Assembly (NCBI GenBank): GCA_007133845.1
Contig: SLLY01000009.1
Coordinates: 1-17,146, forward strand
Direction of reading: 5' to 3'
From: Candidatus Woesearchaeota archaeon
GTDB lineage: Archaea > Nanobdellota > Nanobdellia > CSSed11-243R1
Length of the DNA stretch: 17,146 bases
Part shown: positions 4,328-11,617 of the stretch, piece after piece
Position numbering within the stretch: position 1 is the first letter of the stretch
Layout: each line of letters starts with the position of its first letter
Notes under the pieces: model-generated
Told to the model about the DNA's origin: nothing
Database searches by the model: none
The model's input: only the letters and a program-made list of their open reading frames with translations
Translations under genes and position numbers: made by a program

Positions 4328-5221
4328 ATGAAAATTTGTATAATAGGTTCCAAAAAAAGAACTGAATCCGACAATTTATTAATAGATACAGCTCAAAAAT
4401 TCGGAGAAATCTTATATGTACCAATAGAAGACATTTCACTATTAATTGATAATGGAATAAATTTTACATACGAATACAAAAACATAATAGAAAATGATAT
4501 TATATTGTTTAAAATACCAAAATCTAAATATTCTTTAGCAGGAATGATAATAGAAGCGCTTCCTGAAACCACAACCCTCCTCAATTCTCCAAGGTGTTTT
4601 TACACATGTTGTTCCAAAATACCTTTTTACGAAAAACTTTCCCGTTCCGAAATGAATGTACCTAAATCCATATTCGCAGATAATCCACAAGCAGCAATTT
4701 CAGATTTGAAATTTCTAAGATTCCCAGTAATGATAAAAGTTCCAACAAGCAACGACAAAGTAATGCTTGCAAATTCAGAACAAGAAGTTCGCTCAATGGT
4801 TGATGCCCTTCAAGTTTTAAAACAGCCAATGTTTTTGGAAGAATATTATCCCGAAGCTAAAGTTATTAGCGTACTTGTTTTAGACGGAACTGTTGTTGCT
4901 GCATTAGAAAGAAGCCCTACAGGAATAAATTATTCTGGGGGAGAAATAAAACAAACTAAAGCAGATAGAAAAGTAACTAACACATCATTAAAAGTTGCAG
5001 CTGTCTTAAATACAGAATATGCACAAGTAGATATTTTGAATACAGCAGAACCCACTGTTATCGATGTTAATTTATGTCCGGATGTATTAATGTTTTCGGA
5101 AATTATTCAAAAAAACATAGCTGAAGAAATCTTCTCAATTGCAAAACAAAAATTCGAATCAAATCAACACATTCCAGAAATTGCAGAAAAAATAAAAAAA
5201 GTTTTCAAAGACGTTTTTTAA
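4328..5221 (+). CDS. Divergent RimK-like ATP-grasp paralogue, possible pseudoenzyme
   Basis: A 297-residue tandem paralogue of the preceding ligase, recognisable across its length: N-terminal MKICIIGSKK with VPIEDISL, the PVMIKVP strand with K137, FLEEYY, and the C-terminal VDILN/VIDVNL segment. Key positions differ. The glycine-rich loop SFGGKG is replaced by SNDKVM (141-146), the D-x-R motif by a hydrophobic strand (KVISVLVLDG), the RSN motif by NYSGG, and the metal-ligand glutamate by D246; D235 and N248 remain. Catalysis is therefore doubtful. It may be a regulatory or substrate-binding partner of the active ligase, or a ligase with altered ATP handling. Its stop codon abuts the pcm stop codon with no spacer. 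Confidence 0.75.
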   Translation: MKICIIGSKKRTESDNLLIDTAQKFGEILYVPIEDISLLIDNGINFTYEYKNIIENDIILFKIPKSKYSLAGMIIEALPETTTLLNSPRCFYTCCSKIPFYEKLSRSEMNVPKSIFADNPQAAISDLKFLRFPVMIKVPTSNDKVMLANSEQEVRSMVDALQVLKQPMFLEEYYPEAKVISVLVLDGTVVAALERSPTGINYSGGEIKQTKADRKVTNTSLKVAAVLNTEYAQVDILNTAEPTVIDVNLCPDVLMFSEIIQKNIAEEIFSIAKQKFESNQHIPEIAEKIKKVFKDVF

Positions 5222-5857
5222 TTATTTTTGGAAACCATGCTTTCCAATTAAAGGTACAAATGCAAAATTTCCCAAATCTATTTCTTCAAAACCATCTTTT
5301 TTGTTTATTATAAGTTTCATTTTTTGATTGTAATTATTTTCTCCAACTGGAAGAATCATTCTTCCATTAACATTTAATTGTTTAATTAAAACTTTAGGTA
5401 TTTTAGGAGCCCCAGCAGTTATTATTATACAATCGAAAGGAGATTTTTCTTCGAGTCCTTCAGAACCATCTTTGTAAATAACTTCAACATTGTTATATTT
5501 CTTCAAATTATTTTTTGCAAATTTTACAAGTTCCCCCACTCTTTCTATTGTGTAAACTTTTCCAGGTTTTATTATTTCAGATATAATTGCCGCCTGATAT
5601 CCGCTACCAGTTCCAATTTCCAAAACTCTGTCTCCTTTTGATGGACTAATTGCTTCAGTCATGATGGCAACAGTTGTGGGCTGAGAAATTGTTTGTCCTG
5701 CAAGAATTGGAAGAGGATTATCCACATAAGCAAGCTCCTCATGTTCCTTCATGCAGAAATTTTTTCTATCCACCTTATTGAAAGCTCTTATAATAGATTC
5801 TGTTTTAAGCACACCAGAATTTACCATTTTTTTAACTAATTCTTCATTGCTTTTCAT
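5222..5857 (-). CDS. pcm: Protein-L-isoaspartate O-methyltransferase
   Basis: Methylates L-isoaspartyl residues with S-adenosylmethionine to start repair of age-damaged proteins in the cytoplasm. The 211-residue length is standard. Visible motifs are the N-terminal helix pair ending RKNF, the substrate loop GQTISQPTTVAIMTE, and SAM motif I VLEIGTGSGYQAAII, followed by the acidic residue of motif I-post (TIERV) and later DCIIITAGAP. The gene is convergent with the ATP-grasp operon (zero-base gap) and divergent from mnmA. An inverted repeat lies just upstream of its ATG. Confidence 0.95.
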   Translation of the reverse strand: MKSNEELVKKMVNSGVLKTESIIRAFNKVDRKNFCMKEHEELAYVDNPLPILAGQTISQPTTVAIMTEAISPSKGDRVLEIGTGSGYQAAIISEIIKPGKVYTIERVGELVKFAKNNLKKYNNVEVIYKDGSEGLEEKSPFDCIIITAGAPKIPKVLIKQLNVNGRMILPVGENNYNQKMKLIINKKDGFEEIDLGNFAFVPLIGKHGFQK

Positions 5858-5865
5858 ACTATATC

Positions 5866-5880
5866 ATTGATTTTATCAAT
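5866..5880. repeat. Inverted repeat in the pcm/mnmA divergent region
   Basis: ATTGAT-TTT-ATCAAT is a perfect 6-bp palindrome with a 3-nt centre, 9 bp upstream of the pcm ATG and next to a TATA-like AATTTAATTG (minus strand, near 5878-5888). It could be an operator or a short hairpin; in sequence this AT-rich it could also be chance. Confidence 0.35.
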
Positions 5881-5938
5881 TAAATTTTTTTTGAAGCCAA
5901 AACAAAAAATATGTAAATCAATGTGTATATCTTTTTTT

Positions 5939-6982
5939 ATGGAAAAATTAAAATCAAAAAGAATTGCAGTAGCTATGAGTGGTGGGGTTGATAGTTCTGT
6001 TTGCGCACTGATTTTGAAGCAAAAAGGTTTCGATGTGTTTGGGATAACCATGAAAACAATCGAAGGTTCTAAATGTTGTTCTATTGAAGATATACATCAT
6101 GCAAAAAAAGTTGCAAAACAATTAGGAATAAAACACCACATAATAGATTTAAAAGAAATATTTGAAAAAGAAGTTATAGATTATTTTGTTAAGGAGAGTT
6201 TAAAAGGAAAAAATCCAAATCCTTGTGTGCCATGTAATAGAAAAGTAAAATTTGGAGCTCTCGTTGAAGAGGCTAAAAAGTTGGGTGCCGAAATTGTTGC
6301 AACAGGACATTATGCGATTATTGAAAAAAATGAAAAATTGGTTTTGAAGCGTCCAGTTGACATAAAAAAAGATCAATCATATGTTCTTTCTATGCTTCCC
6401 AAAAAAACATTCAAAAATTTGATGTTTCCACTTGGAAAATATACAAAAAAAGAAGTCAGAAAAATTGCAAAAGAAAATAATTTGACTGTTTACGATAAAA
6501 AGGAAACACAGGATTTGTGTTTTCTAGATAAGCCCAAGGGAGATTTCATAGAAGAAAAAGTCGGCGGCGTGAAAAAAGGAAAAATTATTGATAAAGAAGG
6601 AAATTTGCTCGGTAACCATTATGGACACTTTCATTTCACAATAGGACAGAGAAAAGGACTTAACTTAGTTGGACATAAAAGATATTATGTTTGCGACATA
6701 ATTCCAGAAAAAAACTTAGTGGTTGTTTCAGGAAAAGAAGATTTATTCAAAAAAAGTTTTTATGTTTCTGGATTGAATTGGGTTTCAATAGATAAACCAG
6801 AAAAAGAATTTGAAGCTGATGTGATTATAAGAAATAAAATGATGCCAACACCAGCAAGATTAATACCTGAAAAAAACAAAATTAAAGTGATTCCAAAAAA
6901 TCCAGTTTGGGGCGTTTCATCAGGACAGATAGCAGTTTTTATTAAGGGTGATGTTGTTTTGGGGGGTGGATGGATAAATTGA
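5939..6982 (+). CDS. mnmA: tRNA-specific 2-thiouridylase MnmA
   Basis: Installs the 2-thio group on U34 of Lys/Glu/Gln tRNAs, using ATP and persulfide sulfur from a cysteine desulfurase. The PP-loop SGGVDSS is at residues 14-20. The two catalytic cysteines are C99 (NPCVPCNRKVKFG) and C194 (ETQDLCFLD), both in MnmA context. The HYGHFHFTIGQRKGL region and the C-terminal beta-barrel follow. I start at ATG 5939 (347 aa); an in-frame ATG at 5867 would add 24 residues with no family counterpart. MnmA is mainly bacterial and many archaea use Ncs6 instead, so this may be an acquired gene. The 3' end overlaps the HD gene by 13 nt. The desulfurase and scaffold encoded nearby could supply the sulfur. 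Confidence 0.94.
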   Translation: MEKLKSKRIAVAMSGGVDSSVCALILKQKGFDVFGITMKTIEGSKCCSIEDIHHAKKVAKQLGIKHHIIDLKEIFEKEVIDYFVKESLKGKNPNPCVPCNRKVKFGALVEEAKKLGAEIVATGHYAIIEKNEKLVLKRPVDIKKDQSYVLSMLPKKTFKNLMFPLGKYTKKEVRKIAKENNLTVYDKKETQDLCFLDKPKGDFIEEKVGGVKKGKIIDKEGNLLGNHYGHFHFTIGQRKGLNLVGHKRYYVCDIIPEKNLVVVSGKEDLFKKSFYVSGLNWVSIDKPEKEFEADVIIRNKMMPTPARLIPEKNKIKVIPKNPVWGVSSGQIAVFIKGDVVLGGGWIN

Positions 6983-7509: not shown

Positions 7510-7769
7510 AAATAAAGAAAGCGGCAGAAATAGAAATGAAAAGAATGAAAGAAATATTTGATAATATTTCGATAAAAAATACAGATAAAGCAGACGAATT
7601 TTATTCATTTGCCGAGAATTATTTTGAGGATGGAAAGTATTTTTTTGAAAAAGAAAAATATGTCGAATCCTTTGAAGCTTTCATTATAGCTTGGGCCTAT
7701 TTAGATATAGGCATAAAATTAAAATTTTTTAAGCCGGATAAAATAGTTAAGAAATATTTTACTTCTTAA
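7506..7769 (+). CDS. DUF357 family protein
   Basis: An 87-residue all-helical protein matching the archaeal DUF357 family. The characteristic second helix pair is present: AENYFEDGKYFFEKEKYVESFEA followed by AWAYLDIGIKL (this stretch is residues 36-71). No enzymatic residues are evident; the helical hairpin resembles HEPN/TPR-like packing and the function is unknown. Translationally coupled to the HD gene (ATGA overlap, 7506-7509). Its last 11 bp overlap the end of the convergent iscU gene. Confidence 0.8.
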   Translation: MKIKKAAEIEMKRMKEIFDNISIKNTDKADEFYSFAENYFEDGKYFFEKEKYVESFEAFIIAWAYLDIGIKLKFFKPDKIVKKYFTS

Positions 7770-8139
7770 TTTTGTGTTTTTTATTGTAATTTTTTATTGC
7801 ATCTTTTAGCGCGTCCTGAGCCAAGACAGAACAATGTATCTTATTCTTTGGAACATCTTCTACATTTTTAAGCAAGTCTTGCGCTTTTATTTTGGATGCG
7901 TATTCCAAAGTTTTTCCTTTAGTCAATTCGGTAAGTATTGAAGTCATAGCAATTGCTACAGCACATCCAAGAGTTTGAAATTTTATATCTTCTATTTTGT
8001 CATCTTTCACTTTTAGATATATTTTCATGGTGTCTCCACAAACAGAATTCCCTACTTTTCCAATAGTGTCAGGATTTTCCATTTCTCCCAAATTCCTCGG
8101 ATTTTTGAAATGTTCCATAATCATTTTTGAGTATTTCAT
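7759..8139 (-). CDS. iscU: IscU-type Fe-S cluster scaffold protein
   Basis: A 126-residue NifU_N/IscU scaffold on which [2Fe-2S] clusters are built. Ligands are C34 and D36 (NSVCGDTM), C59 (TLGCAVAIAMTS) and H102-C103 (NKIHCSVLAQDALKDAI). The 43-residue C59-C103 spacing equals that of E. coli IscU, without the insertion typical of SufU. The LPPVK chaperone motif of E. coli IscU is VPKNK here, so HscA-type recognition is unlikely. I start at ATG 8139: MKYSKMIMEHFKNPRN aligns with MAYSEKVIDHYENPRN of IscU, and a GGTGG lies just upstream. A GTG at 8148 would add three residues. Last gene of the sufS operon. Confidence 0.92.
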   Translation of the reverse strand: MKYSKMIMEHFKNPRNLGEMENPDTIGKVGNSVCGDTMKIYLKVKDDKIEDIKFQTLGCAVAIAMTSILTELTKGKTLEYASKIKAQDLLKNVEDVPKNKIHCSVLAQDALKDAIKNYNKKHKIKK

Positions 8140-8173
8140 CTTTTCCACCCACAGTTTCTCATCTTTTCCACCC
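8136..8173 (-). repeat. Two 15-bp direct copies at the IscS-C-domain/iscU junction
   Basis: GGGTGGAAAAGATGA occurs at 8159-8173 and again at 8136-8150. The upstream copy encodes the last four codons and stop (GWKR*) of the preceding gene. The second spans the GTG and ATG start candidates of iscU and provides a GGGTGG ribosome-binding-like element. This is probably a short tandem duplication with an 8-bp spacer. Confidence 0.75.
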
Positions 8174-8494
8174 CGAAATATTTCTCAAAGTTTCAACACC
8201 TTTTTTTATTGAATCAAAAATGTTTTTAACATCTTTTTCAGTAAAATCTTTTTTCCATTTTACGACAAGTGAAGAGTGTGCTTGCTCTCTAGTTAATTCA
8301 TCATTTTTATTATATTCTTTCAAACAAGGAGATTCAGTTGTTGCTTCTATATCCGAATCCTTTAAAATTAGTGAAAGCGCTTCACCTTCAACACCCCCAA
8401 ACCAAAATCCAATCAAATCTTTTTCTAAAGTTTTAAATTTATAACTACCTTCTATTTCAAGTACTTTTTTTATTAATTCTTCCTTTAAATTCAT
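8159..8494 (-). CDS. Stand-alone protein resembling the IscS/NifS C-terminal domain
   Basis: A 111-residue protein that would pass as hypothetical, but residues 29-109 follow the C-terminal small domain of IscS-type cysteine desulfurases as I recall it. GFWFGGVEGEALSLILKD compares with SFNYVEGESLIMALKD of E. coli IscS. TTESPC57 falls at the active-site loop SSGSAC328. QAHSSL falls at LAHSSI, FTEKDVKNIFDSI at the FTTEEEIDYTIEL helix, and LRNISGW at LRDLSPLW. The PLP lysine and large domain are absent. It lies between sufS (ATGA overlap) and iscU. In IscS this domain carries the persulfide cysteine and docks IscU, so it could be a persulfide carrier or a docking adaptor. The C57-to-AHSS loop is about six residues shorter than in IscS. 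Homology is by eye; function is inferred. Confidence 0.65.
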   Translation of the reverse strand: MNLKEELIKKVLEIEGSYKFKTLEKDLIGFWFGGVEGEALSLILKDSDIEATTESPCLKEYNKNDELTREQAHSSLVVKWKKDFTEKDVKNIFDSIKKGVETLRNISGWKR

Positions 8495-9675
8495 TTTAAA
8501 CCATCCACTATTTCTTCCAATTTTTTTATGAATATGTCAATTTCTTTTTTTGTGTTATAAAAGTAAAAGGAAATTCTTGCAGAAGAATCAATACCTAATT
8601 TTTGATGCATTGGCATAGCACAATGATGTCCACTTCTTATGCAAATATTATTGCTATCCATTATACCTGCAACACTTTCAGAATCGATTCCTTTTATATT
8701 GAATGAAATTATGCCGCATCGTTTTTTATGATTTTTAGTTCCATAAATTTCTACACCCTTCATTTTTTTCATTTTTTGAAGAGCATATTTTACAAGATTT
8801 TGTTCGTGTTTCCATATGTTATTCAATCCCACATTTTTAAGATAATTTATCGCTGCTGAGAATCCAACAGATCCTGCTATGTTAGGGGTGCCCGCTTCAA
8901 ATTTCCACGGAATTTCACAAGATTCAAACTTTTCAAAGTCAACACTTTCAATCATATCCCCACCACCCAGAAAAACATCCATTTTTTCAAGAAGTTCTCT
9001 TTTTCCATATAAAACTCCAATTCCTGTAGGTCCGCACATTTTATGAGATGAAAATACTAGAAAATCACAGTTCATCTTTTGAACGTCTACTTTTTTATGA
9101 GGAACTGATTGAGCCGCATCAACAACAAATATTATATTGTTCTTTTTCGCAATTTTTCCTATTTTATTAACAGGATTTATTGTTCCTAGAAAATTTGAAA
9201 TATGTGGACAACTTATGACTTTAGTGTTTTTTGTTATTAGTTTTTCAATCGCATTTATTTCTAATTCTCCATTATTATTTACTGGAATATATTTTATTCT
9301 TACACCTTCAAGCATCATCCAAGGAACCATATTCGAATGGTGCTCCATCTCTGTTAAAATTATTTCATCACCTTTTTTTAATTTCAAGCTTTTTGAAATT
9401 AAATTTATAGATTCTGTTGTGTTTTTTGTAAAAATTATTTCCCTCCAAGATTTTGCATTTATAAATTCCGCTGTTTTTTCGTGAGCTAAAGTGTATAATC
9501 TTGTCGCATCCTCAGAAATTTTGTAAACTCCTCTATGAACATTTGCACAACCTCTTTCATAAAAATTTTTTATATCCTCTATAACTTGTTTTGGTTTTTG
9601 TGTTGTAGATGCATTGTCTAGGTAAATTATCTCGTTCTTTAAAAATGGAAAATCTTCCATAATTTTTTTATTCAT
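8491..9675 (-). CDS. sufS: SufS-type (group II) cysteine desulfurase
   Basis: A PLP enzyme that takes sulfur from L-cysteine as an enzyme persulfide for Fe-S clusters and tRNA thiolation. With ATG 9675 it has 394 residues, normal for SufS. Visible are YLDNASTTQKP near 18-28, H112-H113 (MEHHSNMVPW), D186 and Q189 (VVDAAQSVPH), the PLP lysine K212 (SSHKMCGPTGIGVLYG), FEAGTPN, and the active cysteine C352 in RSGHHCAMP, then SARISFYFYNTKKEID. The RSGHHC context marks group II. An upstream in-frame ATG at 9732 would add 19 residues without family counterpart. The start overlaps the PadR gene end by 8 nt (GATGAATAA) and the stop overlaps the IscS-C-domain gene (ATGA), so the genes are coupled. Confidence 0.95.
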   Translation of the reverse strand: MNKKIMEDFPFLKNEIIYLDNASTTQKPKQVIEDIKNFYERGCANVHRGVYKISEDATRLYTLAHEKTAEFINAKSWREIIFTKNTTESINLISKSLKLKKGDEIILTEMEHHSNMVPWMMLEGVRIKYIPVNNNGELEINAIEKLITKNTKVISCPHISNFLGTINPVNKIGKIAKKNNIIFVVDAAQSVPHKKVDVQKMNCDFLVFSSHKMCGPTGIGVLYGKRELLEKMDVFLGGGDMIESVDFEKFESCEIPWKFEAGTPNIAGSVGFSAAINYLKNVGLNNIWKHEQNLVKYALQKMKKMKGVEIYGTKNHKKRCGIISFNIKGIDSESVAGIMDSNNICIRSGHHCAMPMHQKLGIDSSARISFYFYNTKKEIDIFIKKLEEIVDGLK

Positions 9676-9964
9676 CTTTATAACCACATTTTCCACATAC
9701 ATATTTTTCAAATATGTCGTTGTAGACTTCACAAAAATCTATACAAGCTTTTTTGAGAATTTTTTTACCTTTATCCGTTATCTCGTACTCTTTTTTTCTT
9801 TCCAATTTAAGTGAATCAATCAACCCATTCTTCTCTAACGAATTTAAAAGAGGGTATATTGTCCCCTGATTTGTTTTAATCTTATCCATTAATTCATACC
9901 CATGACAAGATTTTTTACTTATAATCCAAAGTACTTTCAATTGAAGCATTGTTAAGTTTATCAT
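9668..9964 (-). CDS. PadR-family regulator with cysteine-rich C-terminus
   Basis: A 98-residue winged-helix regulator. HGYELMDKI (21-29) and GTIYPLLNSLEKNGLI (34-49) are the PadR hallmarks. The wing and C-terminal helix follow (KKEYEITDKGKKIL). It has five cysteines: C20, C74, C78, C90 and C93, the last two as VCGKCGY at the end. A C-x3-C plus C-x2-C set could bind a metal or Fe-S cluster or act as a thiol switch. ATG 9964 is chosen because the PadR fold begins there and a TATA box sits 28 nt upstream; the longer frame to 10150 runs over the metallopeptidase gene. As first gene of the sufS operon, overlapping sufS by 8 nt, it is a good candidate for controlling Fe-S assembly. Confidence 0.85.
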   Translation of the reverse strand: MINLTMLQLKVLWIISKKSCHGYELMDKIKTNQGTIYPLLNSLEKNGLIDSLKLERKKEYEITDKGKKILKKACIDFCEVYNDIFEKYVCGKCGYKDE

Positions 9965-9970
9965 ATGTAG

Positions 9971-9990
9971 AATTTCGACATATTGAAATT
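9971..9990. promoter_or_regulatory. Candidate PadR operator (palindrome)
   Basis: AATTTC-N8-GAAATT is a perfect 6-bp inverted repeat with an 8-bp centre (GACATATT on the plus strand). It lies between the TATA box and the ATG of the padR-sufS operon and overlaps the TATA edge. PadR dimers typically bind palindromes with about this spacing at their own promoters, so autorepression is likely. Binding itself is not shown. Confidence 0.55.
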
Positions 9991-9998
9991 TATAAATC
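9986..9998 (-). promoter_or_regulatory. TATA box of the padR-sufS operon
   Basis: GATTTATAAATTT on the minus strand is centred about 28 nt before the ATG at 9964. It overlaps the stop codon of the upstream metallopeptidase gene (9990-9992), so the Fe-S operon can be transcribed separately from the genes before it. Confidence 0.6.
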
Positions 9999-10373
9999 TT
10001 TTCTTTCTTTATATTTTTTATAAAGTTTTTCAACCCTTCTTCTTGTAACGTAATTTTTATGATGTTTAAATCCTCCACCCATATTGAAAGGTATATGCAG
10101 TAGTTCGTGAATGAGTGTTTTTTCTTTTTCTTCTTCTGAAAGTTTCTCATATTTTTCAGAAATCATTTCTATTATATAGTGAGAGTCTATCTCAAGAATA
10201 TCTTGCCATATTTTTGAAAGTCCGTAACATCTAGCTATAGTACTTTTTGCTTTAGAACCGTAACTTTTTACACATTTGACTCTCGAAATATCTATATGGT
10301 TCATGTCTAATTTTTCAACTATTTTTCTCATTTTTTGATTTAATTCTGGAGAATTAAAATATTTTATAGCCAT
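9990..10373 (-). CDS. Small HELLH zinc metallopeptidase (putative phage-metallopeptidase type)
   Basis: A 127-residue protein with the zinc motif H89-E-L-L-H93 (LIHELLHIPFNMGGGFKHH) and further histidines at 104-105 as likely third ligand. The preceding block (RVKCVKSYGSKAKSTIARCYGLSKIW, residues 31-56) and YIIEMISEKYEKLSEEEK agree with the family known as putative phage metallopeptidase (PF18894 type), which also occurs in archaeal chromosomes. No signal peptide, so cytoplasmic. Substrate unknown; members often sit near informational or stress genes. It starts 1 nt after the cupredoxin stop codon, hence is co-transcribed with it. Confidence 0.8.
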   Translation of the reverse strand: MAIKYFNSPELNQKMRKIVEKLDMNHIDISRVKCVKSYGSKAKSTIARCYGLSKIWQDILEIDSHYIIEMISEKYEKLSEEEKEKTLIHELLHIPFNMGGGFKHHKNYVTRRRVEKLYKKYKERKDL

Positions 10374-10756: not shown

Positions 10757-11617
10757 TTAATTTAATATATAAAAACTTAATTCAGAACTTATTGAAGGAT
10801 AAAAAATTGGCAATTCTGAAACATTTTCGAATTTGGCCATTTTACTTTTTTCCAAAACTATCGCCTTTGCATCTTCCATTTTAGCAATTTTTTTTAAATC
10901 CTCAAAATTAAATTCTTCCATTTCAATAATTTTCATACTTTCTTTAAAATGATAATATTGTTTTTCAAATTTTTTTGAAAATTCGTGCAAATATTTAATT
11001 TTTCCAGCAAGTATTATTTCACAACCTCTTCTCGCCATTAAAAAAGCATTTTTTTCAGATTCTTTTTTCTCTGAAATATAACAAAGAACTTTTCCTTGAG
11101 TTCCTATTGGAAGTCCTCCATATCCCTCATAAAATTCAGAAAATACATACGCGTCATTTTCATTTATTTCAAAACAGATATTTAATTCGTAATTGTTCAA
11201 ATCTACTTTTGCATTCATATTTTCAACTATATGTGCTCCTATCTCAGAACTTATCTCCATAGAAGTTAATGGAAATTTTTTATCTCTTCTTGTTGTTGTA
11301 ATTCTGAATTTTTTTCCAACATTTTTTTTATAAATTTTAATTGCATATTCTTTCATTTCAGTTAAATTCGGAGAAATAAATTCGGCTGGAGAATAAGAAA
11401 CAATCCCAAAAACATTTTTAAAAATTTTCAATGCTCCTTTTATATCACTGCACCAAACATATATTCTTCCTCCAACTTTAGAAATTTTTTCTATCTCTAT
11501 ATTGTTATTTACAAGAGCCCTAGATAAATTATCTATCAAGATATTTTCAAATTCCTTTCTAACCCATCTAGATTTTATACCTATTTCACCATATCTTACT
11601 ATTATTACATTTTCCAT
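10757..11617 (-). CDS. ThiI-like THUMP protein with degenerate PP-loop
   Basis: A 286-residue relative of ThiI, the tRNA 4-thiouridine synthetase. The N-terminal ferredoxin-like region (IIVRYGEIGIKSRWVRKEFE) and THUMP domain (to about residue 165) are well preserved. The junction to the catalytic domain, YGGLPIGTQGKVL at 166-178, is also typical. Where ThiI has the ATP-binding SGGIDSPVA, this protein has SEKKESEKNA (182-191), then resumes with FLMARRGCEI. The rest is short, about 85 residues, and lacks the normal catalytic-cysteine regions. It should still bind tRNA but probably cannot adenylate it. Possible roles are a tRNA-binding cofactor or a decaying gene; the frame is intact, which argues against recent decay. 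Confidence 0.82.
   Translation of the reverse strand: MENVIIVRYGEIGIKSRWVRKEFENILIDNLSRALVNNNIEIEKISKVGGRIYVWCSDIKGALKIFKNVFGIVSYSPAEFISPNLTEMKEYAIKIYKKNVGKKFRITTTRRDKKFPLTSMEISSEIGAHIVENMNAKVDLNNYELNICFEINENDAYVFSEFYEGYGGLPIGTQGKVLCYISEKKESEKNAFLMARRGCEIILAGKIKYLHEFSKKFEKQYYHFKESMKIIEMEEFNFEDLKKIAKMEDAKAIVLEKSKMAKFENVSELPIFYPSISSELSFYILN

What the first reader, a model, noticed from the sequence alone, without database searches (positions are those of the whole stretch)
8159..8494. Detached IscS C-terminal domain between sufS and iscU
The 111-residue protein lines up by eye with the small C-terminal domain of IscS: VEGEALSLILKD against VEGESLIMALKD, a cysteine at the active-site-loop position, AHSS, an FTEKD helix and LRNIS..W. 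It has no PLP domain. The neighbouring desulfurase is group II (RSGHHC), while the scaffold is IscU-like in spacing and in its IHCSVLA motif. In IscS this C-terminal region docks IscU and carries the persulfide. The attractive hypothesis is a separate adaptor or persulfide carrier that lets a SufS-type enzyme feed an IscU-type scaffold, in place of SufE or SufU. I know of no described system with this arrangement.
Basis: partly seen in the sequence, partly recalled or inferred. Interest (0 to 1): 0.88.

Follow-up and report, generated by a model that had tools for sequence, protein, structure and literature searches.

The report
Free-standing IscS tail domain
A few tiny archaea keep only the tail domain of the sulfur-supplying enzyme IscS as a separate small protein, encoded between a different sulfur enzyme and the iron-sulfur scaffold, where it probably acts as the plug that connects the two.

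Summary
The 111-aa protein X (8159-8494, minus strand) is the C-terminal small domain of an IscS/NifS desulfurase without its PLP domain: a profile of X hits A. fulgidus IscS at E 1.3e-9, and a model from X sequences alone matches IscS best. It lies in padR-sufS-X-iscU, intact in three species of one archaeal family, dN/dS 0.16-0.24. A sister genome has full-length iscS-iscU there, with sufS nearby. In another, SufB is present, iscU is reduced to its tail and X is frame-broken, while sufS is intact. So X follows IscU, not SufS. X keeps the segments by which E. coli IscS binds IscU and the loop cysteine, but not the active-site side. SufE, SufU, SufBD and TusA were not found in the three (incomplete) genomes. 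Best reading: an IscU-docking adaptor acting in trans, probably a persulfide relay or cluster-ligand donor, that lets SufS serve IscU. Docking and sulfur transfer are untested. Two or three other genomes of the class pair a divergent group-II enzyme with IscU without a detected X, so X is not the only solution. No paper search worked, so novelty in print is unchecked.

The parts
8159..8494 (-). X: free-standing IscS C-terminal (small) domain, 111 aa
   Evidence: fold
8324..8326 (-). Codon of Cys57, at the position of the IscS active-loop cysteine (E. coli Cys328)
   Evidence: alignment: Cys in 3 of 3 X and 21 of 21 IscS domains; codon checked
8366..8389 (-). X residues 36-43 (EGEALSLI), matching IscS helix a8 (E. 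coli 309-316), a published IscU contact; invariant in 3 of 3 X
   Evidence: E. coli numbering recalled and checked against residues named in PMC2854127
8285..8287 (-). X Glu70, matching IscS Glu347 (published IscU contact); invariant in 3 of 3 X
8162..8191 (-). X residues 102-111 (TLRNISGWKR), matching the start of IscS C-terminal helix a12 (E. coli from 379), a published IscU contact
8491..9672 (-). sufS, group II cysteine desulfurase (open frame to 9732; start uncertain)
8491..8494 (-). ATGA overlap of sufS stop and X start (likely translational coupling)
7759..8139 (-). iscU, IscU-type scaffold (CGD, GC, IHC ligand motifs; open frame from 8148)
9668..10150 (-). PadR-family regulator, first gene of the cassette (PadR domain about 9752-9934; start uncertain)
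5867..6982 (+). mnmA (tRNA 2-thiouridylase), convergent neighbour; likely another sulfur consumer (start uncertain)

Best explanation
X is the IscU-docking half of a split IscS. In an ancestor with padR-iscS-iscU and a nearby sufS, the PLP-binding part of iscS was lost and sufS came to stand in its place, while the C-terminal small domain stayed as its own gene. X binds IscU with the surface that IscS uses, placing its flexible loop with Cys57 over the IscU cysteines. SufS makes the persulfide; Cys57 most likely takes it over and hands it to IscU, or serves as a temporary cluster ligand there. Shown: homology, predicted fold, gene order, purifying selection, retained contact segments and cysteine, lost arginine, loss together with IscU in one genome. 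Inferred: the order of evolutionary events, physical docking on IscU, contact with SufS, sulfur transfer through Cys57.
Against: G103 and G169 (and G024 with a lower score) combine a divergent group-II desulfurase with an IscU-type scaffold and have neither IscS nor a detected X, so such pairing can work without X. X ends near E. coli residue 388 and lacks the last part of the IscS tail. From the Cys to the AH motif it is 6 residues shorter than DPANN IscS. The loop leucine that matters for IscU in E. coli (Leu333) falls on N/D/K, and the residue before the Cys is Pro (E. coli A327V weakens IscU binding). The X and iscU losses in G003 may be largely one deletion. The contact statistics rest on three related sequences, and the contact set was defined after the alignment had been seen. 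No complex was predicted; no experiment.
Confidence: 0.6

Rival explanations
1. X is a structural cap or ligand donor on IscU, not a sulfur relay: Cys57 completes the nascent cluster as the IscS loop cysteine does in the A. fulgidus IscS-IscU complex, and SufS provides sulfur directly or as sulfide.
For: Best structural and sequence matches are A. fulgidus IscS, including its complex with IscU; entry titles list a D199K mutant and an 'unusual' desulfurase. That this enzyme lacks the PLP lysine and offers a cysteine ligand is recalled, not read here.
Against: Group II desulfurases usually need a protein acceptor (recalled), and none other than X or IscU was found.
Confidence: 0.22
2. X mainly acts on SufS, as an activating subunit, or is partly made as a SufS-X fusion by -1 frameshifting at the TTTAAAA before the sufS stop.
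For: TTTAAAATGA at the sufS end in G000 and G001 puts X in the -1 frame; X has invariant aromatics (W31, W80) where most of the 21 IscS domains have Ser and Leu, a possible new contact face.
Against: No such heptamer at this place in G004 or G003; in the 18 window genes given to the script TTTAAAA occurs in that phase 7 times in 4203 codon positions. SufS is kept in G003 where X is broken.
Confidence: 0.09
3. X is a relic of iscS on its way out.
For: Long branch and lost catalytic-side residues; narrow distribution; broken in G003.
Against: dN/dS 0.16-0.24 over synonymous distances of 1.0-1.6 (rough), amino-acid divergence similar to sufS, iscU and mnmA; intact frame and Cys57 in three species.
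Confidence: 0.05
4. X carries sulfur to tRNA thiolation (MnmA or the ThiI-like protein nearby) rather than to IscU.
For: mnmA and a ThiI-like gene lie in the same neighbourhood.
Against: G003 and G005 keep mnmA and the ThiI-like gene but have a broken X or none at the locus. The kept segments are those for IscU; the TusA site is mainly on the large domain that X lacks.
Confidence: 0.04

Closest known systems
IscS/NifS group I cysteine desulfurase, C-terminal small domain (E. coli IscS 264-404; A. fulgidus IscS, PDB 4eb5/4eb7/4hvk)
   Same: Sequence along the whole length, predicted fold, loop cysteine, IscU-contact segments.
   Different: No large PLP domain, the invariant arginine replaced by V/V/T, the helix after the loop shortened by 6 residues; separate gene.
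SufE and SufU (acceptor proteins of SufS)
   Same: Small cysteine protein encoded next to SufS; proposed job of taking sulfur from SufS.
   Different: Unrelated in sequence (no SufE or NifU_N match to X); derived from a desulfurase domain itself.
ISC core pair IscS-IscU
   Same: IscU-type scaffold and, by inference, the same docking surface.
   Different: Catalysis is on SufS, the docking domain on another polypeptide.
Reduced archaeal systems seen in the same class (SufC-SufB, SufS-SufU, group-II desulfurase with IscU-type scaffold)
   Same: Reduced iron-sulfur assembly in small genomes; G003/G005 carry SufB at this very locus.
   Different: No X was detected in those looked at. Published names for such systems are recalled only.

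Membership tests
IscS/NifS cysteine desulfurase (enzyme) | Large PLP domain with PLP lysine | tested here: not met
   111 aa, matches only model positions 270-386 of the IscS/NifS models; no Pfam match
IscS/NifS cysteine desulfurase (enzyme) | Substrate-binding arginine of the small domain (role recalled) | tested here: not met
   Arg in 21 of 21 IscS domains, V/V/T in the three X
IscS C-terminal small domain | Homology over the domain | tested here: met
   one of the three X also hits CsdA models (best 1.4e-4), weaker than NifS/IscS (best 6.3e-10)
IscS C-terminal small domain | Fold | tested here: met
   and from X rows alone
IscS C-terminal small domain | Active-loop cysteine | tested here: met
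   C57 in 3 of 3 intact X; the broken G003 copy reads Tyr there in its open frame
IscS C-terminal small domain | Binding of IscU | not testable with these tools
   contact segments kept; no complex prediction or assay
SufE | SufE domain PF02657 | tested here: not met
   no Pfam match for X at E up to 10; 0 of 6 family genomes have a SufE match
SufU | NifU_N domain with three ligand cysteines | tested here: not met
   X has one cysteine and no NifU_N match

The most novel reading that the evidence does not exclude
A naturally split cysteine desulfurase system: catalysis on SufS, and IscU docking plus persulfide delivery on a free-standing IscS small domain. It would be a domain-derived adaptor that re-wires a SUF enzyme to an ISC scaffold and disappears once SufBC replaces IscU.
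Probability: 0.45. Interest if true: 0.85.

Novelty: new variant of a known kind. Interest (0 to 1): 0.72.

Why it matters
If true, the scaffold-docking domain of IscS can work in trans. That separates sulfur production from sulfur delivery and gives a small natural tool to ask what the docking domain alone does to IscU. It also shows how SUF and ISC parts can be recombined: full IscS, split IscS with SufS, and SufBC are all seen at one locus within one archaeal family.

Tried and rejected
Chimeric assembly or annotation artefact: rejected, the same order stands in three separate assemblies, two of them named (identity of the named and unnamed copies checked). Short open frames elsewhere: of 69 contigs of the genome-contig scan five had frames under 368 aa: the two other intact X, the broken G003 copy, L058 (cut by a contig end) and L094, a full-length IscS with one in-frame stop. 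A tree of 67 C-terminal domains (119 columns) makes the three X one clade (99/93) but leaves its place unresolved; X is on a long branch and joins another long one. A Gln in the X-partnered IscUs (E. coli Lys59 position) looked like a signature but is common in the other IscUs; five positions are unusual there, the rarest V61 (1 of 63) and M65 (0 of 63), and shared ancestry of the three explains them as well. Scans of viral contigs gave no relative. The fold search in viral models gives full-length NifS-like proteins first (E 1.3e-5, target 367 aa) and adds nothing. Pfam on the three X gave only a meaningless FRB hit at E 0.22. The window has no tRNA or Rfam match. No complex of X with IscU or SufS was predicted: the tool folds single chains, and I did not try to join two genes by a special code.

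Rows left out: the structure alignment used 47 of the 69 loci. The IscS domain comparison used 21 of 29 loci tried; 8 were missed by my motif filter. The IscU comparison used 63 of 64 IscS-partnered IscUs; G088 was missed by my filter.

Literature: all nine paper runs failed by time-out, so no claim is made that the arrangement is absent from print. Paper reading failed. One paper, PMC2854127, was seen: outline, sections 7, 15 and 16 in full, part 1 of 2 of section 9.

Full report
What is there. On the minus strand the window reads padR - sufS - X - iscU, facing the convergent block mnmA - HD - DUF357. X is 111 aa. Its ATG overlaps the sufS stop (ATGA), and the iscU ATG lies 19 bases after the X stop. 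Pfam lists nothing for X at E up to 10, but NCBIfam IscS/NifS models match it at E near 1e-4, TIGR02006 over residues 2-107 on model positions 270-382. A profile of the three intact X proteins hits A. fulgidus IscS at E 1.3e-9 and E. coli IscS at about 5e-5. Scanned one by one, all three X hit four IscS/NifS models (best 6.3e-10); one also hits CsdA models at 1.4e-4 or weaker.

Distribution. Of 188 same-class genomes, 61 matched X at E up to 0.01. Four, all of the window's own family, have short frames (125, 115, 116 and 64 residues); in the other 57 the match lies in a frame of 335-446 residues, as expected of full-length IscS. At E up to 1e-8, 9 of 378 class genomes match: the same four plus five with frames of 385-401 residues. 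In a 371-genome phylum sample, which did not list G001 and G004, 187 matched; the row list was cut, and the listed rows show no further frame under 244 residues outside the family. Named carriers: Candidatus Parvarchaeota archaeon CSSed11_243R1 (PWUQ01000038.1 = G001), archaeon Dive96_bin10.467 (JAJRVP010000005.1 = G004) and, with the broken copy, Nanoarchaeota archaeon AUK188 (JAGGYW010000020.1 = G003). I call the group DPANN from memory; NCBI places Ca. Parvarchaeota in the kingdom Nanobdellati.

One locus, four states (genes of the other genomes outside the searched families were named by eye from their likeness to the window's). G002: sufS, a ferredoxin, a ThiI-like and a cupredoxin gene, then padR, full-length iscS and iscU. 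G000 (window), G001, G004: padR - sufS - X - iscU. G003: sufS intact; X goes out of frame at the cysteine and runs into the last residues of iscU, the rest of iscU being gone; SufB is encoded near mnmA. G005: the metallopeptidase and DUF357 genes are direct neighbours, the whole cassette is gone from the locus, and SufC-SufB stand beside mnmA; this genome is 68% complete. In these six genomes NifU_N matches in G000, G001, G002 and G004, SufBD in G003 and G005, full-length IscS in G002 only, SufS in all but G005. So X is present where SufS is found with IscU and without IscS, and broken where IscU is gone but SufS is not. A single deletion may account for much of the joint loss in G003, so this is one observation, not a statistic.

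Selection. NG86 dN/dS between the three X genes is 0.164, 0.243 and 0.165; amino-acid identities 72, 64 and 64% compare with 80, 62 and 65% for SufS, 78, 60 and 61% for IscU and 66% for MnmA (one pair). Synonymous distances of X are 1.0-1.6, so the ratios are rough; X still looks maintained.

What X kept and lost. In E. coli the small domain is residues 1-15 and 264-404, and IscU touches helix a8 (309-316), Glu347, the end of a11 and a12 (379-391), each IscU on one subunit only; TusA sits on the large domain except for the loop tip (PMC2854127, sections 7 and 15). X spans E. coli 271-389. The positions matching that footprint (36-43, 70, 102-111; the end of a11 was not assigned) are invariant in 16 of 19 cases against 46 of 92 elsewhere (p 0.005), and of IscS-conserved columns 6 of 7 are kept there against 12 of 33 elsewhere (p 0.024). 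The set was taken from the paper after the alignment had been seen, and three related sequences are not independent. Lost in all three X though invariant in the 21 IscS domains compared are an arginine (V/V/T; the substrate arginine by recall), the NG and R before the sheet, the Gly and Ala of the GSAC loop and the loop leucine; five conserved columns are deleted, four of them in the helix after the loop. C57 is kept in 3 of 3. This is what one expects of a domain that no longer closes an active site but still docks a scaffold.

Acceptors. No SufE (0 of 6) and no TusA (0 of 6) matched in the family genomes. The only NifU_N protein of each X genome is IscU-type: HC third-cysteine motif as in the IscS-partnered IscUs, and 31-36% identity to two SufU proteins of the class against 46-54% to the IscU of G002. 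The X genomes are 71-91% complete, so absences are provisional.

Class-wide check and counter-evidence. Of 188 genomes, 70 have a NifU_N protein of at least 117 bits; 64 of the 70 also have an IscS match of at least 298 bits. The six without are the three X genomes, G148 (only a weak desulfurase match, E 8e-32, not followed), G169 and G103 (lists copied by hand from the printed rows). G103, and G024 with a lower score, encode the scaffold next to or one gene away from a group-II desulfurase only 40-45% identical to the SufS of this family; in G169 the two lie on different contigs. These lineages manage without a detected X, so X is one solution, not a necessity.

How it most likely works. X holds IscU in the way IscS does, brings C57 to the scaffold cysteines, and either passes on persulfide made by SufS or serves as a cluster ligand. 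The steps up to 'X is a kept IscU-docking domain' rest on the data above; docking itself, contact with SufS and sulfur transfer are inference. For E. coli the authors argue that the IscS loop cysteine must travel to reach IscU (PMC2854127 section 16), which a small mobile domain might do well; that too is inference.

Novelty. X matches no Pfam family and only the C-terminal part of full-length desulfurase models in NCBIfam. Whether such a domain is described in print could not be tested because all paper searches failed.

Noticed in passing
window 8136-8171; L004 1406-1512: The X stop / iscU start junction carries tandem copies of a 23-base unit with a ribosome-site-like GGTGGAAAA and ATGA: about one and a half copies in the window, 4.7 perfect ones in G001. 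Each full unit reads as an 8-residue mini-frame (MRNCGWKR / MRSCGWKK) echoing the end of X.
   Followed up: partly
window 10757-11617: ThiI-like protein with ferredoxin-like and THUMP domains but, by eye, a degenerate PP-loop part; G002 has a separate PP-loop frame with SGGIDS upstream (L122 2969-3598).
   Followed up: no
L123 4356-5291; L124 5846-7473: A single SufB (with a SufC-like ATPase in G005, named by eye) near mnmA in G003 and G005, apparently replacing the SufS-X-IscU route at the same locus.
   Followed up: partly
window 8490-8500: TTTAAAA heptamer before the sufS stop in G000 and G001 puts X in the -1 frame; absent there in G004 and G003.
   Followed up: partly
G070, G087, G117, G120, G182, G184: NifU_N matches inside frames of 508-608 residues, possibly IscU fusions.
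   Followed up: no
L094, frame from about 5100 to 6320: Full-length iscS of a Ruminiclostridium MAG with one in-frame TAA.
   Followed up: no
L131 1743-4074; L132 2072-3695: Another unusual pairing: divergent group-II desulfurase (RSGQHC) next to, or one gene away from, an IscU-type scaffold, in genomes without a detected IscS.
   Followed up: partly
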